NCBI GenBank assembly: GCA_030643485.1
Contig: DAOWLG010000041.1
Span: 1 to 35,009, forward strand
From: Candidatus Nealsoniibacteriota bacterium
GTDB taxonomy: Bacteria > Patescibacteriota > Minisyncoccia > Minisyncoccales > JAGMDC01
Length of the DNA: 35,009 nt
Direction of reading: 5' to 3'
Shown here one piece after another: positions 3,686-34,467 of the stretch. Within the stretch, counting starts at the first letter, position 1. Each line of letters begins with the position of its first letter. The notes under the pieces were generated by a model. It was not told where the DNA came from. It worked only from the letters and a program-made list of their open reading frames with translations, and ran no database searches. Position numbers and translations under genes: made by a program.

Positions 3686-4933
3686 CTATTTATTAATCTT
3701 CAAAAAATCTTTATGCACCTTACTTAAATAATCAGGTTTTCTTTGCAATACATCGTTCATAAAATATTTTAAGCCGCCATACGGCGGTAATGTTTGGCTA
3801 TTATTTTTACATTTATTGTAAATTTTTTCAAAGTCTCTTTTTGAAAATTTATCAAAAAATATTCGCGTTGTCGCAAAAAATATGTCGTTTTCTTTGAACG
3901 ATTCTATTTCATAGTCATAAATAAACTTATTTTTTAAAAGAGAGAACACATATTCATCACATTTTTCAAGAATGGCGGTTATTGCCGGATCAGATCGTAA
4001 TTCGTCTCCCGATAAAGCCCTTTTATTATCTGAATCCAATATAGCGATTAAACCATCAAATAAATTTTCTTTACCTTGATATTCTCGTTGTAATCGCCCA
4101 TAAAGAAAATCGGCCATAATTTTTGTGGAATTGATACAGAACTCGACCTCATATAACTCAGGTTTAGCCGATGCCACATGTCTATCACCAATAGAATTAC
4201 TTAAATTATCAATTGCATGAACAATTTTTGAAAAACCATAGCATATCGATTTGAAACTCTTATCTGGGGATTGCTCTTGCGAAAGCTTGAGTAAATTTTT
4301 GATCAATTTATATTTATCTGGCAAGCCACCACTTTGAGACATTTCTTCTCCAATGACTCTCTTATAAATGTCAGAGAAAACACCCTCAATAAATGCCCTT
4401 GCACTACTTACTGCCCCATCATAATCATTGCGAACTATTTTATCTGCACATTTTTTCAATTGATCGCCCGCATATTTTTCGCTCACCTCGTCTTCATTTC
4501 TAAACTCAAAATCACTTTTAAACTCAACTGCCACATAAATTGGCTTATTAGATATTCTTGTTTTCTCAACCAACTTCCATCTGTCAGTGGCAAGATGGCC
4601 ATTAAAAACATTTAACAACTCTGAAACTTCTTTTGCGTCATTTCTAACAACGGGATGTATTATTTCGGCTATAAACCGCAAAAAAGTATAGTCATCGCTC
4701 ATTAAATTAAGACGAGTATCAGAAATAATCCACCAGTCATCCCAATCGTTATTATTTATTCTGTGTTGCCAAATATCGCCTCGCATATTTTGGAATCGAT
4801 TATCAGTTGTAGGTAAAATTTCAATGTCAAAAAGGCGATTAAGAAACTCTACCTCGTCAAGCCGTCCCGACCAATTCATATTGCGAATTTTCAATTCATC
4901 AAAAATATTTCTTTTGGTGATTTCTGAAATCAT
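3686..4933 (-). CDS. Abortive-infection family protein (AbiJ N-terminal plus Abi_C-like)
   Basis: The N-terminal 130 residues (WSGRLDEVEFLNRLFDIE, GDIWQHRINNNDWDDWW, IHPVVR) resemble the AbiJ_NTD3-type domain. Residues about 170-285 (FIEGVFSDIYKRV, then GDRH, then a hydrophobic helix) resemble the Abi_C region, a HEPN-like helical domain of phage abortive-infection proteins. A further stretch of about 125 residues is unrecognised. In relatives as I recall them the Abi_C motif is RN..GD.HG; here it reads SNSIGDRHV, so the arginine seems replaced by serine. The gene follows the Res nuclease fragment by 5 bases, so it is the last gene of the type III RM operon. Family call is from memory of motifs. 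Confidence 0.65.
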   Translation of the reverse strand: MISEITKRNIFDELKIRNMNWSGRLDEVEFLNRLFDIEILPTTDNRFQNMRGDIWQHRINNNDWDDWWIISDTRLNLMSDDYTFLRFIAEIIHPVVRNDAKEVSELLNVFNGHLATDRWKLVEKTRISNKPIYVAVEFKSDFEFRNEDEVSEKYAGDQLKKCADKIVRNDYDGAVSSARAFIEGVFSDIYKRVIGEEMSQSGGLPDKYKLIKNLLKLSQEQSPDKSFKSICYGFSKIVHAIDNLSNSIGDRHVASAKPELYEVEFCINSTKIMADFLYGRLQREYQGKENLFDGLIAILDSDNKRALSGDELRSDPAITAILEKCDEYVFSLLKNKFIYDYEIESFKENDIFFATTRIFFDKFSKRDFEKIYNKCKNNSQTLPPYGGLKYFMNDVLQRKPDYLSKVHKDFLKINK

Positions 4934-4938
4934 ATCAA

Positions 4939-5706
4939 TTATTGACTAAACAAATCCTCAAACTTTTTCCAATTTTTATCTAACTTCCCTGGAACATATT
5001 TATAATTTTTGGAGCAGTTAAAATGCCAAACTTCACTTTCTTTGATAGTAATCCCACCGACAAACTTTTTGCCAAATTCTTTTAACTTTTTAGCCAAGGC
5101 CGACGCTCGCCCCTCGGTATCTGTGGCAGTCCGTCCGCTTTTTGTGTTAAAAATACCAATTCGTCCATCTTTAAATTTTAAAATCCAATCTGGATAAAAA
5201 AGAGAAAATTTTTGATCAGCAGTATTAAAATATTTTATTGCAAAATATTCCTGACCAATCCCTTGTTTTAACCACCATTCAATATATTTTTCCTTGCTAT
5301 CAATATAATTTATAAAACTTACCTCGTTTAGCTTCCCGTCATAATTATCTTTTCTAATATAAAAATCTTCTAACACGCAAAGTTCGGCAGGCATAATTTC
5401 ATAATCATCAGTAAAACTATAACTTTCCTGAATAGTAAAAATCGGGGTTTCCTTTTCCTCATTTTTTTTCACTCGCTCGCTTAAAATTTTTTCTAAAATT
5501 GGCCTATAATCTTTCAATGCCCGCGTGATTGCAGGACGAAAAACACTACTTGCTCCTTTTCGAATATCTTTTATGAAAATGCGGTAATAATAATCGCTAT
5601 TTTCACCTAAAACGCTTTTCATCCAAACTCTAACTGCCGATTTCAATGGACTCCAAGATCGGGCGATGTTTGTTATCTTTGCTTTGTCTTCTGTCTGTTC
5701 TTTCAA
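4939..5706 (-). CDS. Type III restriction Res subunit, C-terminal nuclease part (separated by an in-frame stop)
   Basis: This part carries the PD-(D/E)XK nuclease region of a type III Res: FYPDWILKF followed by IGIFNTKSG, where relatives usually have DTK or ETK. The acidic residue is Asn here (codon AAC, one transition from GAC), which may cripple cleavage. The reading frame is the same as that of the helicase ORF upstream: helicase, then TAA, then TTA, then TTG, the start used by the track. It is therefore more likely the tail of a Res gene broken by one nonsense codon than an independent gene, although a separately translated subunit or stop readthrough is possible. Joined length would be about 787 residues, reasonable for Res. 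Confidence 0.75.
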   Translation of the reverse strand: MKEQTEDKAKITNIARSWSPLKSAVRVWMKSVLGENSDYYYRIFIKDIRKGASSVFRPAITRALKDYRPILEKILSERVKKNEEKETPIFTIQESYSFTDDYEIMPAELCVLEDFYIRKDNYDGKLNEVSFINYIDSKEKYIEWWLKQGIGQEYFAIKYFNTADQKFSLFYPDWILKFKDGRIGIFNTKSGRTATDTEGRASALAKKLKEFGKKFVGGITIKESEVWHFNCSKNYKYVPGKLDKNWKKFEDLFSQ

Positions 5707-5709
5707 TAA

Positions 5710-7302
5710 TTACCAACAAAGATAATTAAAAGTTTTTTCAACATCGTTTTGGGATATTTCCATAAAAATGTCATGTCCTTTTTTCTGAAATTCAAAGTTA
5801 ATTCTATCGTAATCCTCAAATTGTGCATCAACAATTATTTGATTGGTTGTTAATGGATCTAAATCAATTCCTTTCTTTGTTAATTTCTTTTTCGCTTTTC
5901 CTAAAATATCGCCTTTATTAAGTCCAAAATAATGATTCATTGACTCAATAAAACTTGCCTGAAATTTTGCTGAATTACTTAAATCCCCATAATTAACACG
6001 AGAAACATAGGCGGATTGAATCTGAATATTATTTATGTCTTCTTTCTGTTTTGAAATATGAACAAATGGTTTATTTTGTGATTTATCAATCCAGTTATCA
6101 GTGATGTCTTTCCTGTTGTAGTTAGTGTACAAATAACCAACTCTTAAATTCGGACTATTTCTATAATTATCTTTTTGGTCTGGCTCGGGCATTCTCAATA
6201 TCCGCCCAACTGTTTGAATAAATCTTTGCTCAACTCTAATGTCTCTAAACATTACCAATACATGGGCTCGCGGGCAATCCCAACCAGTACCAGCCGCTAA
6301 TTTGAAAAGTAAAATATCGTAATCATCTTCGTTATCCTCAATCCCATCAGGTTTGGGATATTTATCAAACCAACGCCCGATTTTATTTTCTTTAATCCCT
6401 CGCTTTTTTAAAAAATCGCTTGCTATTCGCTCTTTGGTTTTTTCACCCATCTGTACTCTTTCGCTGTCATCATTCGGTAATTGTATTAAAAGGAGAGGAT
6501 TTACTTTTTTGCCCAATGCCTCGAATTCTGCTTTCAACTGCTCTCTTTTTTCTAAACCAAAATCAAGTAAGGCCTCGTCTAAATCCTTGCCTTTTATCTT
6601 TTTCAAATCTTCTTCTGTCTGCGTTATAATTTTTTCTTTAATTAATCCTTCGGAAACAACTCGCTCTCTATTAACTACAATATAACTACCTAAATCAGCA
6701 GATTTTGCCACAATCTCTGGTTTTGGCGTAGCGCTAACATGAATAACGACTTTGGGGTCAATATAATCAATAATCTGCTGTGCTAAATCTGGCGTCACAT
6801 TGGTATGAGCCTCATCAATAATTAAAATAATTGATCTGCTGTCTTTTTTTGTTCCATCAATAAAATCTTCAAAATATTTTCCGCTTTCTTTTCTCATTCT
6901 TTCATCGTCTGGCCTTCGCAATTTTCTACTTTCGGCCGATCTGGCAGAAACCTTTTGCCAATTCAAAAACAAAATATCATTTTCAAGCATTTTACCTCGA
7001 TTGATGTCGTTAACAGTAAGTAAATTATTTTCGAGTGTATTTTCAAAATACTCTTCAAATTTTTTCTTACTTTGCATCGCCAAATCATCACTGAAAGTAA
7101 TCCAAATGAACGCTTTATCTATGTTCCAATTCGGCAATTTATTTAGTCCACGAATAAAATGAGCCAACATAAAAGTTTTTCCGCTCCCGGTTGGTGATTT
7201 AAAAACAAGCGGCAATTGCTGTCCCTCTTTTTTCCAAATTGCAGTGAGGGCAAAAAGCAATTTTTCTATTGTGTCTTGTTGAAATGGTAAAGGATTAAAC
7301 AT
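5710..7302 (-). CDS. res: Type III restriction Res subunit, helicase part
   Basis: This is the DNA translocase part of a type III restriction enzyme, a superfamily 2 helicase. Visible motifs are I (SPTGSGKTF, near residue 40), II (IIDEAH), III (HVSATPKP) and VI (QTVGRILRMPE), with LAAGTGWDCPRA before motif VI. The 530 residues end in a single TAA, after which the same frame continues into the nuclease part. The gene starts 2 bases after the mod stop, so mod, res and abi are one operon. Without the nuclease the product could still translocate but not cut. Confidence 0.88.
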   Translation of the reverse strand: MFNPLPFQQDTIEKLLFALTAIWKKEGQQLPLVFKSPTGSGKTFMLAHFIRGLNKLPNWNIDKAFIWITFSDDLAMQSKKKFEEYFENTLENNLLTVNDINRGKMLENDILFLNWQKVSARSAESRKLRRPDDERMRKESGKYFEDFIDGTKKDSRSIILIIDEAHTNVTPDLAQQIIDYIDPKVVIHVSATPKPEIVAKSADLGSYIVVNRERVVSEGLIKEKIITQTEEDLKKIKGKDLDEALLDFGLEKREQLKAEFEALGKKVNPLLLIQLPNDDSERVQMGEKTKERIASDFLKKRGIKENKIGRWFDKYPKPDGIEDNEDDYDILLFKLAAGTGWDCPRAHVLVMFRDIRVEQRFIQTVGRILRMPEPDQKDNYRNSPNLRVGYLYTNYNRKDITDNWIDKSQNKPFVHISKQKEDINNIQIQSAYVSRVNYGDLSNSAKFQASFIESMNHYFGLNKGDILGKAKKKLTKKGIDLDPLTTNQIIVDAQFEDYDRINFEFQKKGHDIFMEISQNDVEKTFNYLCW

Positions 7303-7304
7303 AA

Positions 7305-8936
7305 TTATTCTGTGCTTAGATTATAAATCTGCTTATATATTTCTAAAATTGGCAAAGGAATTGTTTTTACTTTTATTTGATCTATATCTGCAAGGTCGTC
7401 AAAAAATTCTTCATCGCCCCAACTAAAAATATAAATTGTCGTTTGCTTTTTTAATTTTTTGATCATTTCTGTAAATTCATCAAATTTATCTAATTCCTCT
7501 CGAAAATATACTGCAGTGTATTTTTCTTTATTCCCGTCTTCAAATAATTGATAAAACTTATTTTGTTTTACCAGATCTAAAGTATTTTCAGTAATGGCTA
7601 ATAATTCGCCTGCATTATGGGCAAGTTCAATTTTATCATGGTCGGTCGCGTTCAAAATATTGTGTTTGCCAATGAAAGCCGTTTTATAAAATTTTACTCC
7701 GCTTTTGTTTAACTTCACTACTTTTTTAATTCTTGGATAACAAACATCTCTCATTATTTTGTGCTTTTTTCCATTTATAACCTCATCATTGTTGGTGACT
7801 AAAATAAACTGCCTTCGCCCGTCATCTTCTTTATTCAAAATCATAACTGCCTCACCTATTGTTCCTGATCCAGCAAAAAAATCTAAAACTATCGCATTTT
7901 TATTTAATGATAATTTTAATGTTCTCTTAATGAGTGAAAGCGGCTTTTGTGTAGTAAATCCAATGTATTCTTTAGACCCTCCTTGTAAGGCCTTAATCTC
8001 ATCATCTATCCAAATATCAGATAACATTCTCCCATTAGTTTCATTAAGATATTTTTTAAATCTATATTGTCCATTTTTTGTTTTATAAATTCTATTTTTC
8101 TTCCACCACATTTCAAGGGTTTCTTTTTTATACAGCCACTGTTCGATAACTCCATGAAATTCAAAAGATTTTCTTGTCTCGCTTCTTTGTGTTCCTCCAG
8201 CTATAATTGCAACTGTTTGATAAAAACCTTTCCCGTTATTGTCATTATGGACAAAAGATTTTTTGTATTTTTCGTCTATTTCTCCAACAAATTTATTAAG
8301 AAATAATTTTTCTATATTTTTAGCATAGACCAAAATAAATTCGTACTGATTTCCTAATTGATTTGCTTGTGCTTTGGGGCTATTTGTTTTTTTCCAGACG
8401 ATAATATTTACAAAATTAAAAGGATTAAATATCTCATCACATAAAAGTTTTAATTGTGCAAATTCATTATCGTCAATACTAATAAAAATAGCTCCAGATT
8501 CTTTCAATATGTCTTTTGCTAATTCTAATCTCTTCCCCATAAAAGAAAGCCAATAGCTATGTCGGAATGGGTGATCTTTCGGCACTTCTGTGCCATCGGG
8601 ATATTTGTCTAAAATTCTTCTATCTTTGTAACGAAAACCGTCAGAGCCGGTGTTATAGGGCGGATCAATATAGATAACATCAATCTTGCCCTTGTGAGTA
8701 TAATTAAGACAAGTTAAGGCATGATAATTGTCGCCCTCAATTAAAATATGAGTCGGCTTGTCGTCTTTGTTATTTATGGCAAATTTTGGCACTTCTTTAA
8801 GAACAGGTAATTTATTTTCAACATCATCTTCAAAAGCTTCCGGAACATCCATCCAAACTAAACCATAACGCTGTTTTTTGACGGCTTTTTTTAATCTTTC
8901 TATCTCTTTTTTTAATTTCAAAATTTCTTCGGCCAT
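7305..8936 (-). CDS. mod: Type III DNA methyltransferase Mod subunit
   Basis: Mod gives the type III system its sequence specificity and methylates adenine. The order is that of the beta group: DPPYNTGSDGF (motif IV) near residue 92, a central region of about 200 residues that is likely the target recognition domain, then LDFFAGSGTIGEA (AdoMet motif I) near residue 355. The N-terminus contains a short basic coiled-coil-like helix (LKLKKEIERLKKAVKK). The length of 543 residues is typical. A promoter, TTTACA-N17-TATACT, lies just upstream. The recognition sequence cannot be read from the protein. Confidence 0.92.
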   Translation of the reverse strand: MAEEILKLKKEIERLKKAVKKQRYGLVWMDVPEAFEDDVENKLPVLKEVPKFAINNKDDKPTHILIEGDNYHALTCLNYTHKGKIDVIYIDPPYNTGSDGFRYKDRRILDKYPDGTEVPKDHPFRHSYWLSFMGKRLELAKDILKESGAIFISIDDNEFAQLKLLCDEIFNPFNFVNIIVWKKTNSPKAQANQLGNQYEFILVYAKNIEKLFLNKFVGEIDEKYKKSFVHNDNNGKGFYQTVAIIAGGTQRSETRKSFEFHGVIEQWLYKKETLEMWWKKNRIYKTKNGQYRFKKYLNETNGRMLSDIWIDDEIKALQGGSKEYIGFTTQKPLSLIKRTLKLSLNKNAIVLDFFAGSGTIGEAVMILNKEDDGRRQFILVTNNDEVINGKKHKIMRDVCYPRIKKVVKLNKSGVKFYKTAFIGKHNILNATDHDKIELAHNAGELLAITENTLDLVKQNKFYQLFEDGNKEKYTAVYFREELDKFDEFTEMIKKLKKQTTIYIFSWGDEEFFDDLADIDQIKVKTIPLPILEIYKQIYNLSTE

Positions 8937-11378: not shown

Positions 11379-12326
11379 TTAATCTAATTGTTTTATGTAG
11401 TTTCTAAATGCTTTTTCTAATTTAACCATAATTTCAATCATTTTTTCTTGTATTTCATCCCATTTTTCTTTATTTTTTAATCCTATCTCTTCAAAATCTA
11501 CAGAAATTCTTGAAGCCCTCCTGTTGTCAAGTCGTTCCCACTTTATCTTACTGCTAAACTCTTTTTCAATTTTATCTTTATGTTTAAATAATTTGTCGAA
11601 ACGAATTTTATTGATATTTGGCTCTTCAAATTCTTTTCCTCTATCAAAGTATATCTCACAACTCGCATATTTGTTGGTAATAACATAACTATAACTAATA
11701 CCTGATACGCCTGCACCTGTACTAATCCAATAACGTGCACTTGGCGAAGTATTTGCATGTAATTTTGTTTTTCCTTTAGCTTTATCTAAAAGTTGCGTCC
11801 AAAACTCTTTCATTAAAATATGTCGTTCAGCATATTCTTTTTTTTCCGCGCCTATTTGTTTTGATTCTCTACTTGGTCTCTTGATTATCGTAAATAAAGG
11901 CGCGGCTAAAGTTTGTGATTCTATTTTAATCGCCTCTATTTTTATCAAATAAAAAGAAATATCATCTGGGGTTGTTTCGTTCAGCCATTCAATCGCCTTG
12001 GTATGTTCTTCTGTTGGTTTGCTTGTTATCCATATGGCAGTATTGGCTTCAAGATTAGTCAAATAAGTAATAACTTTGCCGAGATGGTCGTGGTCTGTTT
12101 TTTCTAATTGATTTTCTATTATTACTTTTTTACCAAAATTATCCTCACCAAATAAGTCAACCTTAAATGGACCAACTTTTTCTTCTCTAGACTCTATAGA
12201 TATGTCAATATCTAATACTTCGTTAAGGTATTCTATATTTTTTTCTAACCATCTTGTAAAATCTTTATCCTCTTTTTTCCAAAGTTCTCTTAAAGAAACT
12301 TTTTTTATTTTTCCAATTGATGTCAT
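11379..12326 (-). CDS. DUF4268-type PD-(D/E)XK-like protein
   Basis: The N-terminal half (FTRWLEKNIEYLNEVL, then VDLFGEDNFGKKVIIENQLEKTDHDHLGKVITYL) fits the nuclease-like fold that precedes DUF4268: the motif is D-x(n)-IENQ rather than E-x-K. The C-terminal half (LLDKAKGKTKLHANTSP.. RYWISTGAG.. YSYVI) fits DUF4268. The track starts at a TTG (12428); the ATG at 12326 (MTSIGKIKKVSL) gives 315 residues and a proper family start. Function is not established; such proteins often sit among defence genes, as here. A minus-strand -10 TATAAT sits within the palindromic site shared with the small RNA promoter. Confidence 0.7.
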   Translation of the reverse strand: MTSIGKIKKVSLRELWKKEDKDFTRWLEKNIEYLNEVLDIDISIESREEKVGPFKVDLFGEDNFGKKVIIENQLEKTDHDHLGKVITYLTNLEANTAIWITSKPTEEHTKAIEWLNETTPDDISFYLIKIEAIKIESQTLAAPLFTIIKRPSRESKQIGAEKKEYAERHILMKEFWTQLLDKAKGKTKLHANTSPSARYWISTGAGVSGISYSYVITNKYASCEIYFDRGKEFEEPNINKIRFDKLFKHKDKIEKEFSSKIKWERLDNRRASRISVDFEEIGLKNKEKWDEIQEKMIEIMVKLEKAFRNYIKQLD

Positions 12327-12372
12327 AATTATGTTATTTAGCGCGGCGTTCGCGCCATCTAATTCAAACCTA

Positions 12373-12400
12373 TTGACAAAAATTTTGAGGTTGCTATAAT
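12373..12400 (+). promoter_or_regulatory. Promoter of the small RNA, with palindromic bidirectional -10
   Basis: TTGACA (12373-12378), a 16-base spacer and TATAAT (12395-12400) form a perfect promoter on the plus strand. The -10 is half of the palindrome CTATAAT-g-ATTATAG (12394-12408), so the minus strand also reads TATAAT, with TTGTCC 15 bases upstream of it. That could serve the DUF4268 gene. Confidence 0.8.
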
Positions 12401-12406
12401 GATTAT

Positions 12407-12506
12407 AGAAACAAGGCATCGGGGACAAATCTCCGTGTGAGAAAGTTCTGATTTTTCAGGACTACCCGGTAACCTGACCACCCACAAGCTGGGTGGTTAT
12501 TTTTTT
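12407..12506 (+). ncRNA. Putative small RNA convergent with the DUF3800 gene
   Basis: An unannotated transcript of about 100 nt is predicted by a perfect promoter (12373-12400) and a strong terminator, ACCACCCA-caagc-TGGGTGGT then TATTTTTTT (12477-12506). Between them I can fold CGGGGA-caaa-TCTCCG (12420-12435) and AGTTCTGA-tttt-TCAGGACT, plus an alternative pairing of ATCGGG with CCCGGT. No convincing ORF lies within. It matches none of the RNA families I know (6S, SRP, tmRNA, common riboswitches). Its 3' end is antisense to the last codons of the DUF3800 gene. Confidence 0.65.
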
Positions 12507-13019
12507 ACTGGCTAATTTATATAATTCTTTTGCTTTAGTATTGCTTGTGTCATTCCAATAAGCCCTAATCAAACCTGCATAAGCATCGGCTAACCTCAAA
12601 CAAGGAAATGCTTTATCGTCACCGGTTCTTATTTTTTTAACTGAAATTCCGCGATTTCGTAAAATCTTTTTCAGTCGCAACGCATACCATTTTGGCTTTT
12701 TGCCATCTATAACTATTTTTCTAATTTTCCTCTCTATTAACAAGGATTTGAGCGCTTCTTCAAAACTATCTTCGCTAAAAGGATTTTTGATTATTGCTGC
12801 TTTAACTGAAAAATTTTCTTTGATTAGAGCCTTGATAAAATTAAATCTAATTTTCCAAATATGCCGTGGCCAATGAAAGCTCGTTATTTTCAACATTTTT
12901 TCTGTATTTAATATCGCCTTTTCAATATTTTCTATATCTTCAATCATAACATAAACCAATGCCACTGAAGACTGGCCGTCTTTTTTATGAACCCCTGATT
13001 CATCAATAAAAATTAACAT
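12462..13019 (-). CDS. DUF3800 protein (RNase H-like fold)
   Basis: The protein starts with MLIFIDESGVHK, the hallmark D-E-S-G strand of DUF3800. It has a second acidic strand (IRKIVIDGKKP) and a final RLADAYAGL, giving the spaced acidic residues of an RNase H/transposase-like fold. The last residues (ITTQLVGGQVTG) are encoded within the small-RNA terminator hairpin on the other strand. The gene begins 8 bases after the secF stop, so it is the last gene of the htrA-secD-secF unit. The family's biochemical role is unknown; nuclease activity is an inference from the fold. Confidence 0.8.
   Translation of the reverse strand: MLIFIDESGVHKKDGQSSVALVYVMIEDIENIEKAILNTEKMLKITSFHWPRHIWKIRFNFIKALIKENFSVKAAIIKNPFSEDSFEEALKSLLIERKIRKIVIDGKKPKWYALRLKKILRNRGISVKKIRTGDDKAFPCLRLADAYAGLIRAYWNDTSNTKAKELYKLASKKITTQLVGGQVTG
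12477..12506 (+). terminator. Terminator of the small RNA
   Basis: The eight-base-pair stem ACCACCCA/TGGGTGGT with a five-base loop is followed by TATTTTTTT. On the opposite strand the hairpin lies inside the final codons of the DUF3800 gene (reading TTQLVGG). Confidence 0.85.
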
Positions 13020-13027
13020 AATTTTTA

Positions 13028-13927
13028 TTATTTGCTACGGCGTTCGCGGCGTCTGATCCAGGCGACTAAAATTGGGCTTGCCAAGAACATTGAAGAATAG
13101 GTTCCGGCGGTAATACCGATAATGAGCGCTAGAGCAAAATATCTCAGGGTTTCACCGCCGAAAAAGAAAATAGCCATTAGAACAAATAAAGTGGTTAAAG
13201 AAGTATTAACGGAACGGGTAAGCGTCTGACGCAATGATATGTTCACGATTTGTTCTAATGAAGCGCTTTTTGTTTTTATTAAATTCTCCCTTACCCTATC
13301 AAACACAACAACAGTATTATTAACTGAATAGCCCAAAACAGTTAACAACGCTACAATAACCGGAATAGAAATTTCTACTCCTTGATATTTTCCTAAAATA
13401 GAGAAAACTCCCAAAGGAATTATCACATCATGCCCCAACGCAACTAATGTCGCAAGGCCGTACTGCCAACTTTTTATAGGTATATAGACCTTCCTAAAAG
13501 CAAAAGTAACATATAAGACAATAGCCAAAAGAGACAAAATAATAATAAATTTGGTTTTTTGTTTTAACTCCTCGCCAATAACCGGCCCGATCGATTCAAA
13601 CCGCTGCTCTTCCAATTTATAATCCTCACCAAGTTTTTGAAGAACCTCCTGATGTTTGTCTTCGCTAAGCTCCTTCATTCTCAAAATTATTGTTCTTTCT
13701 TTGCTCGGCTGAATTACTATGTTTCCTAAATCAATTTCAGATAAAATTTCTTTTATTTCTTCAGTAGATGACCTTGTGTCTTGATATTCTATTTCCAAAA
13801 TACTTCCACCAGTGAACTCAATACTCGGCTTCAAACCGAAAATCGCAAGACAAACCAAACTGCCTATTATCATAATAGATGAGAATATAAAATATACTTT
13901 ACGGTATTTGAGAAAAGAAATGTTCAT
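13028..13927 (-). CDS. secF: Protein translocase subunit SecF
   Basis: SecF with SecD uses the proton-motive force to complete protein export through SecYEG. The sequence has one N-terminal membrane helix, the periplasmic signature EFTGGSILEIEY, and five further hydrophobic segments including YSVNNTVVVFDRVREN and SVNTSLTTL. The track start at 13960 is a TTG inside repeat sequence; the ATG at 13927 (MNISFLKYRK) is the natural start, giving 299 residues. secD lies upstream across a 205-base gap filled with simple repeats. Confidence 0.93.
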   Translation of the reverse strand: MNISFLKYRKVYFIFSSIMIIGSLVCLAIFGLKPSIEFTGGSILEIEYQDTRSSTEEIKEILSEIDLGNIVIQPSKERTIILRMKELSEDKHQEVLQKLGEDYKLEEQRFESIGPVIGEELKQKTKFIIILSLLAIVLYVTFAFRKVYIPIKSWQYGLATLVALGHDVIIPLGVFSILGKYQGVEISIPVIVALLTVLGYSVNNTVVVFDRVRENLIKTKSASLEQIVNISLRQTLTRSVNTSLTTLFVLMAIFFFGGETLRYFALALIIGITAGTYSSMFLASPILVAWIRRRERRSK

Positions 13928-13939
13928 AAAAATTTCAAG

Positions 13940-14085
13940 GTTATAATTTTCAATTATCAATTTTCAATTATCAATCAATTATCAAATTCCAATTTTCAAA
14001 CAAATTAATTAATTTTATTCATTGAAAATTGAAGAATTGAAAATTCATTGAAAATTGGTCATTGAAAATTGAAAATTTTAAGCCA
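13940..14085. repeat. Degenerate ATTGAAAATTG-type repeat array between secD and secF
   Basis: The gap contains repeated variants of TTTTCAATTATCAA on one side and ATTGAAAATTG on the other, so the whole can fold back as a long AT-rich hairpin. The same word family (ATTGATAATTGATAATT) appears in frame inside comEC at 21810-21855. I see no promoter or gene here. Confidence 0.65.
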
Positions 14086-17024: not shown

Positions 17025-17858
17025 TTATTTAACAAATAATTCTATTGGATTTATCTTAAATTGAAGCATCTTTGAACTTTCTCTACCAGCATCACCACCT
17101 TTTTGATAGGAGTTTCTTTTGATTTCTGATATTTGTCCGCTAATCCTTTTTTTAATTAAGTCACAATAATTTTTTGAAATATCCATTGTAATATAATCTC
17201 TCTCTATTTTTTTTGCTACGGATGCTGTTGTTCCTGTTCCACCAAAAGGATCTAACACAATATCATTTTCATTAGAACTTGTTTTAATGATCCGCTCTAA
17301 TAAACTCTCGGGCATTTGACAAGGATGATTACCTAGTCTTTCTTTAAAATTTCCGCAAATTCGTGAAAACTCCCATACATCGTCAGGTATCTTTCCAATC
17401 GGATTTGCTCTTTTGTCATTATAGATTAATTGTCTCGCCGACGGTATCCGTATAGATTTACTATTGAAAACGAATTTTTCTTTATTTTTTGTAAAATAAA
17501 GTATATGCGTATGAACACGATTAAACTTTTTGCGTTGATTTTGTCCAAAACTATAATACCAAATAATCCAATTTCTATAATAAAATCCTGTTTGTTTCAA
17601 AATTATATTTATTTCTGCTGCAAACTCATCACCAATAGCAATATAAATTGATCCTTCTTTTTTTAATATTCTAAATGCTTCTATTATCCATTTTTTAGAC
17701 CAATCAAAATATTCTTTGTAATTACGTTTATCATTATAATTGTCGTATTTTAAGCCTATATTAAAAGGTGGATCAGCAAAAACTAAATCAATTGAATTGC
17801 TTGGCAATTCTTTCATTATCTCAATGCAATCGCCTAAATAAACTTTATTTAATTCCAT
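17025..17858 (-). CDS. DNA amino-methyltransferase (beta group) of a HaeII-like RM system
   Basis: The protein is an N4-cytosine or N6-adenine methyltransferase: FADPPFNIGL (motif IV) near residue 28 comes before DPFGGTGTTA (AdoMet motif I) near residue 205, the beta-group order. In 277 residues there is room for only a short target recognition part. It overlaps the restriction gene by 10 bases and lies after it. It lacks the PCQ and ENV motifs of 5-methylcytosine enzymes, which is worth noting because the HaeII methylase itself is, as far as I recall, a C5 enzyme. Confidence 0.88.
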   Translation of the reverse strand: MELNKVYLGDCIEIMKELPSNSIDLVFADPPFNIGLKYDNYNDKRNYKEYFDWSKKWIIEAFRILKKEGSIYIAIGDEFAAEINIILKQTGFYYRNWIIWYYSFGQNQRKKFNRVHTHILYFTKNKEKFVFNSKSIRIPSARQLIYNDKRANPIGKIPDDVWEFSRICGNFKERLGNHPCQMPESLLERIIKTSSNENDIVLDPFGGTGTTASVAKKIERDYITMDISKNYCDLIKKRISGQISEIKRNSYQKGGDAGRESSKMLQFKINPIELFVK

Positions 17859-18904
17859 ATTTTGTCTTTAAGTTTATGGTAGCCTCTATTTTTATAAAAA
17901 CGGATAAATTTTATATTTTTGGAAACAGGAAATTCATTTCTAATTTCCTCTATTAATATTTTGAGTAATTTATCGCCCAATATGTTACTATAAACTCCTC
18001 GTAATGCCCTCTCATACCAATCAATCAAATTTTTTTCTGTGATGATACTTTGTATTTTGGATTTCCAACCAATTTGATTTAATATAGAAACAATAACTTT
18101 TTCTTCTACTTCTTTACAAACAATGACTATTCTATCTGCCGAAATTGAATTCACGACATCTTCAGCTAATTTCTCATCTAACGATAAATGTTTTATTTGA
18201 ATTACTAATCCAAAATTAGCCCACATATCCAGACCCCTATCTGCTGCATTTGTTACTCCCACTCTGTATATTTTTGCTGGTATTCTAAATTGTGGATTAT
18301 CAACAGAAAGATTGATAATTTGTTTTGTAAAATCTTCAAATTCTTTAAGTATATTCAATTTTGTTTTATTCAAACTTACTTCTACTGTAATTTCTATTGT
18401 ATCCACTAAAACCGAAAAAAGCGCATAAACAATAATTTCGTAAATTTTATCAATACTTCTTCTTAGTCCGGGTTCGTTCCAAAAAAAAGATAAAAAGGAT
18501 GATAAATTAAATTTATTTTTATCATTTTTAACACAATACCCAAGCCCGATAGACATTTGAGAATATTTATCTAAAAATTTGCGGTATATATAGGATTCTA
18601 CTATTCCATTCTTCTTTCTATTTTCTTTTCCCAAAATTGATAATATTTTAGTGGCTATATTTTTATTAAAAATATCATCTTGATATCTGGCAGAGGAGGC
18701 ACTTATTCTCCCTAAAAATTGAATACATATTACATCTCGCCAACTTTTTGAAGCCGTTCTATAAGTTTCAATCTTGGAAAGATTTATATCTTTGGAAATT
18801 CTATCTCTATATAATATTTCTGCAATCTGAACGGGTTTATACATATGGACTCTAGATTTATTTATTACTTTATCTAAAGCGTTTTTTGCTTCTTGAATAT
18901 TCAT
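17849..18904 (-). CDS. HaeII-family type II restriction endonuclease
   Basis: Motifs match HaeII-type enzymes as I remember them: KSRVHMYKPVQIAEILYR near the N-terminus, YRTASKSWRD, SSARYQDDIFN, and the catalytic region RGLDMWANFGLVIQIKHLSL, a PD-(D/E)XK variant with D then QIK. It is followed by ADRIVIVCKEVEE. HaeII itself cuts RGCGCY; the specificity here is not proven. The track begins at a GTG (18916); the ATG at 18904 has a purine-rich GAAGG just ahead, giving 351 residues. The endonuclease precedes and overlaps its methylase, so expression control must come from elsewhere. Confidence 0.72.
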   Translation of the reverse strand: MNIQEAKNALDKVINKSRVHMYKPVQIAEILYRDRISKDINLSKIETYRTASKSWRDVICIQFLGRISASSARYQDDIFNKNIATKILSILGKENRKKNGIVESYIYRKFLDKYSQMSIGLGYCVKNDKNKFNLSSFLSFFWNEPGLRRSIDKIYEIIVYALFSVLVDTIEITVEVSLNKTKLNILKEFEDFTKQIINLSVDNPQFRIPAKIYRVGVTNAADRGLDMWANFGLVIQIKHLSLDEKLAEDVVNSISADRIVIVCKEVEEKVIVSILNQIGWKSKIQSIITEKNLIDWYERALRGVYSNILGDKLLKILIEEIRNEFPVSKNIKFIRFYKNRGYHKLKDKIWN

Positions 18905-18972
18905 AATTTCCTTCACCTTAATACTACGCCAAAAATCAAAAATAGTAAAGAATATGTAATAAATAATTACAT

Positions 18973-23342: not shown

Positions 23343-24302
23343 TTAATCAACTTGTGGTTTTACAATTTCACAACGGTAGTTCTTAAAAATATCTTCAAAT
23401 AATTTCTTTTTTCGCTCTAAGAAAATATTAGTATTTTTATACAAATAGTTGTAAATTATCTTAAGCTGATTAATCCCTCCATATCTTACTCTATTTATAC
23501 TTTTCCCTGGATAGTTAATAGAAGTAATCGGAAGTCCTAACACTGCCAACCGAGATTGAACAGCAGAAACAAATTCTTTATTTCCTTCAATATTAAATTC
23601 TCCTCCATAAAAAATATATTTTCGCCCAGATTTTTTACGAGTGACTCGTCTGGCTCTATTTATACATCCATCAGCGTCAAACGCTCCTCTAATAAAATGT
23701 CTTTCAAGCGATTTTGGGATGTCGGGAAATCTTACAGTAAAAGTTTTACGCGGAGTTATGTGATATTGAGCTAAATCGGTTACCATCTTCAATGAACGAA
23801 AATATACCTCTAAACTATTAGTATTTTTATGATAGTAATCTTTCCCAGTCCATTTTACTGCTTTTTTAAATTTTTTAAGATATTTTTTATCTTTTATGGC
23901 AAGAGGAAGTCGTACTTTATTTTCGGTTATTGAGCCATCTCCACTTAAAAATCCAAGCCAATATGCTTTTTCCTCATTATTTATTTTTTCAAAAAATAAT
24001 TCATCTAAGTTATATTTTCTGTGAAGCAAACTACTTCTTAGTTTATATTCTAATGTTCTTTTCTTCCCTTTATTACAGCAATTTCTACACTTGTAAAGAA
24101 TAACTCTTTTTGTAAACCAACCTTTTCTTACGAGGTTTATTTTGCCACACATCGTACATTTAACAGGAATTTTTCTCATCATTCCTCCTTTCCAAAAATT
24201 AGACTTCTCGCCAGCATTCCAAGGTTGCGGTTTTCCTTTTAATGTCTCGCTTATTTTCCTTTTATGCTCTTCTGTTGGCTTATATTTACCTAATAATGGC
24301 AT
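23343..24302 (-). CDS. LAGLIDADG homing endonuclease, free-standing
   Basis: Two LAGLIDADG-type helices are visible, AYWLGFLSGDGSI near residue 120 and RHFIRGAFDADGCI near residue 205, so the protein can act as a monomer with two active-site acids. The N-terminus has a NUMOD3-like DNA-binding motif (EEHKRKISETLKGK) and cysteine pairs typical of a zinc finger (CTMCG, CRNCC). No intein or intron context is visible. It starts 2 bases after nrdD ends. Genes for ribonucleotide reductase are favourite homing targets, so nrdD is the obvious candidate locus. Confidence 0.88.
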   Translation of the reverse strand: MPLLGKYKPTEEHKRKISETLKGKPQPWNAGEKSNFWKGGMMRKIPVKCTMCGKINLVRKGWFTKRVILYKCRNCCNKGKKRTLEYKLRSSLLHRKYNLDELFFEKINNEEKAYWLGFLSGDGSITENKVRLPLAIKDKKYLKKFKKAVKWTGKDYYHKNTNSLEVYFRSLKMVTDLAQYHITPRKTFTVRFPDIPKSLERHFIRGAFDADGCINRARRVTRKKSGRKYIFYGGEFNIEGNKEFVSAVQSRLAVLGLPITSINYPGKSINRVRYGGINQLKIIYNYLYKNTNIFLERKKKLFEDIFKNYRCEIVKPQVD

Positions 24303-27051: not shown

Positions 27052-27858
27052 TTAATTATTATTTGGAAATGGGCTATTTCTGAATTCCCAATTTTTTATG
27101 AAATGTGAATATTTTTTCTCAAATTCTAAATAATCTTTCTTCAAAAGTAAAATTAAAATTATCTCTGGATAAAATTTTCTAAATTTTCTATCTCTTATTT
27201 TAGAATATCTCCAAAGGAAATTTTTAACCTCAATATAAATATTATATTCTGGTAGATAAAAATCTGGAGTATATGTCTGCGAAACTAAATCAAAAATTTT
27301 TGCTTGATGTATCCATTTAACTCCCAGAAGGTTAAACAATCTAGCAATATTTGCTTCCCAACGACTATAAAAATAAATATTTTTATCAATATCTTTTCGT
27401 ACCCCTGCTTTTCCTCTGGCTGCTTTTGGTGATGTTGGTCTTCCTCCTATTACTTCCATTGTACATTTATTGCTACAAAATTTTCTATTACGCATCCACT
27501 TTTCTTTCAAAAATACTTTTCCACAACGAGGATTAGCACATATAATTTTTATTCTTGGTACTTTTATAGTTCCTTTATAAGGATTTTTTCTTCCTTTTAA
27601 TGCTTCGGCTATTTTTAATTTTATCTCATTGGGCCAATAACCTCTTTTTATATTATTAACTTTTGCGGCGCAGCTTCGGCTGCAATAAATCTTTGAATTA
27701 CTTGGAATAACTTCAAAAATTTTACTACATCCTTTTCTACCGCATATTCTTTTTTCTCTTTTGCGACGAAAATCAAAAACTCCTTTTTTCCAATTTTCCC
27801 TTGTCAATGCGCTTTGTTTCTCTTTATATTCTTTAGAATTATAAAAATTGTATCTCAT
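27052..27858 (-). CDS. Zinc-finger PD-(D/E)XK homing-type endonuclease
   Basis: The C-terminal domain has FYSRWEANIARLFNLLGV, then YTPDFYLPEYNIYIEVKNF and a lysine-rich helix. This is the E..PD..ExK pattern of free-standing PD-(D/E)XK homing endonucleases found in phages and CPR genomes. The N-terminal part has two zinc-finger-like cysteine sets (CGRKGC..CSRSC and CANPRC..CSNKC) and a NUMOD3-like stretch (NEIKLKIAEALKGRK). It begins 7 bases after the 3' end of tRNA-Thr, an unusual insertion point. The target site is unknown. Confidence 0.78.
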   Translation of the reverse strand: MRYNFYNSKEYKEKQSALTRENWKKGVFDFRRKREKRICGRKGCSKIFEVIPSNSKIYCSRSCAAKVNNIKRGYWPNEIKLKIAEALKGRKNPYKGTIKVPRIKIICANPRCGKVFLKEKWMRNRKFCSNKCTMEVIGGRPTSPKAARGKAGVRKDIDKNIYFYSRWEANIARLFNLLGVKWIHQAKIFDLVSQTYTPDFYLPEYNIYIEVKNFLWRYSKIRDRKFRKFYPEIILILLLKKDYLEFEKKYSHFIKNWEFRNSPFPNNN

Positions 27859-34439: not shown

Positions 34440-34467
34440 ATTATATCAAACCAAAAGACCTTGTCAA
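34440..34467 (-). promoter_or_regulatory. Leaderless consensus promoter of the 47-residue ORF
   Basis: On the minus strand TTGACA (complement of 34462-34467), a 16-base spacer and TATAAT (34440-34445) match both hexamers exactly. The ATG follows after 9 bases. Confidence 0.75.

What the first reader, a model, noticed from the sequence alone, without database searches (positions are those of the whole stretch)
12373..12506. Promoter-terminator small RNA opposite the end of a DUF3800 gene
Seen: perfect TTGACA-N16-TATAAT, then about 100 nt with two stable hairpins and a possible alternative pairing, then a strong terminator. The terminator lies inside the last codons of the convergent DUF3800 gene, so the ORF end and the RNA end are bound together in sequence. 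DUF3800 has an RNase H-like fold. Inference: the RNA could be a partner or regulator of the DUF3800 protein, a guide or an antitoxin-like RNA, or an independent sRNA. I know of no described RNA with this sequence.
Basis: partly seen in the sequence, partly recalled or inferred. Interest (0 to 1): 0.78.

Follow-up and report, generated by a model that had tools for sequence, protein, structure and literature searches.

The report
DUF3800-II RNA beside its nuclease gene
The small RNA is real but already catalogued (Rfam DUF3800-II); in every intact related locus I could read it faces the end of a gene for a nuclease-like protein, which suggests an RNA-protein pair, most likely an RNA that keeps a toxic enzyme in check, although nobody has tested this.

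Summary
In detail: a perfect promoter, a ~95-nt structured RNA and a strong terminator lie antisense to the end of a DUF3800 gene. The RNA is not new. It is Rfam RF02961, DUF3800-II (66.9 bits, cut-off 43.2). Its lowest-energy fold is the Rfam three-way junction plus the terminator.

The link to the protein is very strong. A protein-only search found 38 relatives, all named ones Candidate-Phyla-Radiation-type MAGs. All 36 whose contig passes the gene end carry this RNA convergently: 33 above Rfam's cut-off, 3 below it. The RNA's closing helix P1 covaries. The protein folds like RNase HII.

Beyond the finding, DUF3800 genes of this phylum in general carry convergent structured RNAs. Many match no Rfam family. 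Several classes share one junction core (35/107 against 8/181 control gene ends).

RNA copies persist where the protein is lost or broken, never the reverse. I therefore favour an RNA antitoxin of a DUF3800 nuclease, in an arrangement unlike classical type III systems. This is inference; no transcript, binding or toxicity was tested.

The parts
12373..12400 (+). Promoter of the RNA: TTGACA (12373-12378), 16 nt, TATAAT (12395-12400), with TG before the -10
12408..12479 (+). DUF3800-II RNA core (RF02961), three-way junction
   Evidence: 66.9 bits, gathering 43.2, E 6e-12; exact fold
12414..12475 (+). P1, the helix closing the junction: 12414-12416/12473-12475 and 12418-12423/12465-12470
   Evidence: fold; pairing and two-sided changes across the collected loci
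12424..12429 (+). J12, conserved unpaired GACAAA
12430..12442 (+). P2 hairpin
12444..12463 (+). P3 hairpin, variable length among relatives
12462..12464 (+). Conserved CUA at the P3/P1 junction; its complement is the TAG stop codon of the DUF3800 gene
   Evidence: CUA or UUA in all loci examined
12475..12506 (+). Intrinsic terminator: stem 12476-12484/12490-12498, then U-run
12462..13019 (-). DUF3800 gene, 185 aa, small subfamily A; RNase HII-like fold; invariant D6 E7 S8 G9, D105, D145
   Evidence: PF12686 36.2 bits; alignment A3; model mean pLDDT 86.5; Foldseek RNase HII E 2e-5
13028..13960 (-). secF, upstream of DUF3800 on the same strand (about 20 nt gap); in relatives of the same family and order that were read it is followed by other genes

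Best explanation
The locus is a two-gene RNA-protein module: a DUF3800-II RNA, made from its own strong promoter, and a convergent gene for a small RNase HII-like DUF3800 protein. Most likely the RNA folds into a three-way junction that binds the DUF3800 protein and holds its nuclease activity in check, i.e. it works like an RNA antitoxin, with the protein as a growth-arresting (addiction or anti-phage) toxin. Shown here: promoter, structure, covariation of P1, invariant convergent pairing with this protein subfamily, protein fold (predicted), and survival of RNA copies without protein. Inferred: binding, nuclease activity, toxicity and inhibition.
For: Protein-only search: 36 of 36 readable relatives carry the RNA convergently, 33 above Rfam's cut-off and 3 below it; four of the 36 were seed loci, so 32 are independent. 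P1 pairs in 91-92% of cells against 63-69% when partners are reshuffled, with two-sided changes at 5 of 5 and 3 of 4 positions. Among 12 strong RNA hits in 380 genomes, 9 face a DUF3800 gene (one frameshifted) and 3 do not: G063:C9 beside rpoB, G050:C24, and a second copy behind the gene in G158. In at least 5 loci the protein is broken (frameshift in L007, early stops in L074, L080 and L089, deletion in L095) while the RNA stays intact. No intact protein of this subfamily lacks the RNA. Loss of the toxin but not of the antitoxin is what such a module predicts. RNA promoters are near consensus in many loci. The fold is nearest RNase HII and acidic residues are invariant. Precedent: another structured RNA described near abortive-infection genes, the abiF motif (RF03085) in RCd22, neutralises its toxin by direct binding (PMC12373285). 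The window also holds an AbiJ-like gene and restriction systems.
Against: No transcript, binding or toxicity data exist. The geometry is unlike known type III toxin-antitoxin loci (opposite strand, downstream, own promoter). In a Legionella transposon screen a strain-specific DUF3800 gene itself scored essential (PMC7811196), the opposite of a simple toxin unless insertions there also hit the RNA. Broken genes could partly be MAG errors, and the numbers of solo RNAs are small. Linked genes are co-inherited anyway, so association alone does not prove binding.
Confidence: 0.45

Rival explanations
1. The RNA is a non-guide cofactor: it scaffolds or activates the DUF3800 nuclease to form a defence ribonucleoprotein, and protein alone is inactive.
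For: Universal pairing and conserved junction; DUF3800 proteins accompany some class 2 CRISPR systems (PMC10910872; PMC12669027).
Against: RNA copies survive without protein and beside broken proteins, which a dedicated cofactor would not be expected to do; the other partner could however be elsewhere in the genome (G063 and G158 hold further DUF3800-II pairs).
Confidence: 0.27
2. The RNA is a cis-antisense regulator of the DUF3800 mRNA (overlapping 3' ends, transcription collision, or a shared terminator region).
For: In the window the last codons and the stop of the gene lie opposite the RNA.
Against: The ORF reaches the RNA in only 18 of 36 relatives; in the others it ends before it, up to 96 nt away. 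The conserved letters are structural and P1 covaries. Solo RNAs exist.
Confidence: 0.12
3. The RNA guides DUF3800 to a nucleic-acid target, as TnpB/omegaRNA or Cas systems do.
For: RNase H-superfamily nuclease fold next to an RNA that overlaps the gene end.
Against: No unpaired variable stretch: unpaired letters are conserved (AAC, GACAAA, CUA, CUGACC) and variable segments are helices or hairpin loops. The RNA is antisense, and transcription ends at the terminator.
Confidence: 0.05
4. The RNA is an independent small RNA that merely lies near the gene.
For: Three solo copies.
Against: 36 of 36 association found through the protein alone.
Confidence: 0.03

Closest known systems
Rfam RF02961 DUF3800-II RNA
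   Same: Sequence, three-way-junction structure and neighbouring DUF3800 gene: this RNA is a member.
   Different: Nothing in the core. The terminator and the stop codon lying on the junction CUA are outside what the Rfam model itself (69 positions) shows.
DUF3800-V and DUF3800-IX RNAs (RF02964, RF02968)
   Same: Also convergent at the end of DUF3800 genes; IX shares the junction with UA before the closing helix.
   Different: Different sequence families with different DUF3800 subfamilies.
AbiF/RCd22 (abiF RNA motif RF03085, HEPN-type toxin)
   Same: Structured ~100-nt RNA with its own promoter and terminator beside a toxic protein gene; direct neutralisation shown there (PMC12373285).
   Different: RCd22 lies upstream on the same strand and is partly co-transcribed; the protein fold differs; function here is untested.
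Type III toxin-antitoxin (ToxIN, CptIN, TenpIN)
   Same: Would work alike: RNA inhibits an RNase.
   Different: There the RNA is upstream, co-transcribed and usually tandem repeats processed by the toxin, and the toxin has another fold (general knowledge). Here it is convergent, single and has its own promoter.
RNase HII
   Same: Best solved-structure match (E 2e-5, probability 1.0), with a shared DExG-like start of the fold (motif comparison from general knowledge).
   Different: About 15% identity; the position of the last acidic residue (D145 in LADAxAG) differs (general knowledge of RNase HII).
TnpB/omegaRNA
   Same: RNase H-superfamily nuclease with an RNA at the 3' end of its gene.
   Different: Sense strand and a guide in TnpB; antisense and no guide here.

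Membership tests
Rfam DUF3800-II (RF02961) | Covariance-model score above the gathering cut-off | tested here: met
   66.9 against 43.2 bits, full length 1-69
Rfam DUF3800-II (RF02961) | Three-way junction P1/P2/P3 with covarying P1 | tested here: met
Rfam DUF3800-II (RF02961) | Lies near a DUF3800 gene | tested here: met
Type III toxin-antitoxin | RNA upstream of and co-transcribed with the toxin gene | tested here: not met
   RNA is convergent, downstream, with its own promoter
Type III toxin-antitoxin | Tandem RNA repeats | tested here: not met
   single copy in the window genome; tandem or flanking copies only in some other DUF3800 loci
Type III toxin-antitoxin | Toxin of the ToxN/CptN/TenpN fold | tested here: not met
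   best solved match RNase HII
Type III toxin-antitoxin | RNA binds and inhibits a toxic RNase | not testable with these tools
   needs expression and binding assays
RNA-guided nuclease (TnpB/omegaRNA-like) | Variable guide segment in the RNA | tested here: not met
RNase HII family | Sequence membership | tested here: not met
   Pfam reports only DUF3800 for it; the similarity is structural only

The most novel reading that the evidence does not exclude
DUF3800-II, DUF3800-IX and a set of RNAs absent from Rfam are one superfamily: a three-way junction with a GA-starting J12 and UA before the closing helix, transcribed convergently at the end of DUF3800 genes. It would be the specific inhibitor (or partner) of an RNase HII-like protein family, forming a widespread RNA-antitoxin-type system with a new geometry and a new toxin fold.
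Probability: 0.35. Interest if true: 0.78.

Novelty: new member of a known kind. Interest (0 to 1): 0.52.

Why it matters
DUF3800 proteins are widespread (also in some CRISPR loci) and a set of described RNA motifs has been tied to them without a known function. The universal, one-directional pairing, the common junction core and the survival of RNA without protein turn 'RNAs near DUF3800 genes' into a directly testable RNA-protein pair in tiny-genome bacteria.

Tried and rejected
Viral contigs, phage and plasmid collections: no relative of this protein. Solved structures by sequence: none convincing. Weinberg et al. 2017, which I recall as the source of the DUF3800 motifs, is not held. No paper I read in the library gives a function for DUF3800. 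Repeats around the G063 loci showed no convincing element ends. Comparison with relatives at secF shows only that the DUF3800 insertion is absent in those read, not its exact borders. The DUF3800-II model was not found beside other DUF3800 subfamilies. Rfam at E up to 10 did not recognise the RNAs of the GQD-type subfamily. A mixed MAFFT alignment of those RNAs put two sub-classes one base out of register and was not used for counting. P3 and terminator pairing statistics were crude and are not relied on.

Full report
What is there. On the + strand a perfect sigma-70 promoter (12373-12400) precedes an RNA that starts at about 12408 and ends in a strong terminator (12475-12506). Exact chance expectation for the promoter pattern in this window is 0.01. 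Rfam identifies the core 12408-12479 as DUF3800-II, RF02961, at 66.9 bits against a cut-off of 43.2. The minimum-energy fold of the transcript is the Rfam three-way junction followed by the terminator (z = -3.75 for 12400-12510). I believe the motif comes from Weinberg et al. 2017 (own knowledge; that paper is not held). PMC10910872 notes that DUF3800 domains had been associated with putative ncRNAs.

The gene opposite. The convergent ORF 12462-13019 is DUF3800 (PF12686, 36.2 bits). An AlphaFold model from 32 relatives (mean pLDDT 86.5) matches RNase HII best among solved structures (E 2e-5, probability 1.0). It matches a viral DUF3800 protein best among predicted viral structures. D6, E7, S8, G9, D105 and D145 are invariant. 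Its TAG stop codon is the complement of the conserved CUA of the RNA junction. The same fixed position is seen in 8 of 36 relatives and a near one in 2 more. In all, 18 of 36 ORFs reach the terminator, while the others stop up to 96 nt before it. The ORF-RNA overlap is thus a clade trait, not a rule.

Association test. Using only the protein (alignment A1, from 7 loci first found through the RNA), I scanned a collection of 84,980 genomes and obtained 38 loci. All named ones are CPR-type (Patescibacteria) MAGs. Two contigs end inside the gene. Of the other 36, 33 carry RF02961 above the cut-off and three carry it below the cut-off, always convergent just downstream. Four of the 36 (L062, L063, L069, L070) are seed loci, judged by matching contig lengths and places, leaving 32 independent cases. 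The two parts of the closing helix P1 pair in 92% and 91% of cells, against 69% and 63% with reshuffled partners, with two-sided changes at 3 of 4 and 5 of 5 positions (the 3' arm of the inner part was chosen by best fit, a mild bias; the outer part was fixed).

RNA without protein. A model built from 39 loci gave 12 strong hits in 380 genomes of the phylum. Nine face a DUF3800 gene; the one in G295 is frameshifted. Three lack a DUF3800 gene on that side: G063:C9 next to rpoB, G050:C24 and a second copy behind the gene in G158. Premature stops (L074 TGA165, L080 TAA23, L089 TGA15) and an internal deletion (L095) leave the RNA intact. I found no intact protein of this subfamily without the RNA. 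This asymmetry is what an antitoxin predicts, but the numbers are small and MAG errors are possible.

Beyond the finding. I took a census of the PF12686 genes found in those 380 genomes. For 107 with enough downstream sequence, the antisense strand at the gene end folds more stably than at 184 control gene ends (median z -2.23 against -0.50, p 6e-17). It also has more good promoters (10 or more of 12 letters: 48% against 10%, p 2e-16). Rfam recognises DUF3800-IX and DUF3800-V at some loci. Many others match nothing, including a GQD-type subfamily in which all 20 readable loci show a promoter, a structured RNA and a terminator by inspection. A simple descriptor (a three-way junction with UA directly before the closing helix) is met by 35 of 107 DUF3800 ends against 8 of 181 control ends (p 1.5e-10). 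With J12 also starting GA it is 20 against 0. Replacing UA by other dinucleotides drops the count to 3-8, apart from AG, which overlaps UAG. The descriptor was written after looking at these loci, and hits within a class are related, so the p-value is optimistic. Even so, the hits cover DUF3800-II, DUF3800-IX and several unclassified groups.

Mechanism. The RNA has no free variable stretch that could act as a guide, it does not always overlap the mRNA, and it is never absent from the intact pair. I therefore favour direct recognition of the junction by the protein, with the RNA restraining an RNase HII-like nuclease. The nearest tested precedent is AbiF/RCd22, where a structured RNA neutralises its toxin by binding (PMC12373285). 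A cofactor role is the main rival. A strain-specific essential DUF3800 gene in Legionella (PMC7811196) fits an addiction-like locus but not a simple toxin. Binding, activity and toxicity are all inferred.

Verdict. The RNA is a known family, correctly spotted; the partnership with DUF3800 is strongly supported; the function is unproven. The common junction across DUF3800 RNAs and the unlisted classes are the parts most worth following.

Noticed in passing
L043, L044, L046-L056, L100-L122 (downstream of the DUF3800 stop, antisense): The GQD-type small DUF3800 subfamily carries convergent three-way-junction RNAs (e.g. CAGCCGAAUACUUCC...AUAGGCUG) not matched by any Rfam 15 family even at E=10 in the loci searched.
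   Followed up: partly
L028, L031, L033, L037, L039, L049: Another recurring convergent RNA beside DUF3800 genes, GAGUAAUUCCUCGUGCGUGGGGCUCCGUAUGGUUCCUC-like; L028 and L031 gave no Rfam hit above cut-off and L049 none at E 0.01.
   Followed up: no
L057-L059: DUF3800 genes of about 163 aa are followed by an RNA of a further type, in two tandem copies each with its own promoter-like and terminator-like sequence in L058 and L059.
   Followed up: no
L009 1311-1398 and 1994-2081; L123 830-901 and 1606-1677: DUF3800 genes with copies of the same RNA on both sides in the same orientation.
   Followed up: no
window 34440-34467 (-): Second perfect TTGACA-16-TATAAT promoter in the window.
   Followed up: no
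window 3686-8936 and 17025-18916: Defence genes: an AbiJ-like gene beside a type III-like restriction-modification pair, and a HaeII-type restriction-modification pair.
   Followed up: no
window 11379-12428 (-): DUF4268 gene matching candidate defence family PDC-S11 next to the RNA promoter; the listed TTG start overlaps the RNA and is probably too far upstream.
   Followed up: no
window 23343-24302 and 27052-27858 (-): ORFs that look like homing endonucleases, the first beside an anaerobic ribonucleotide reductase-like gene (judged by eye).
   Followed up: no
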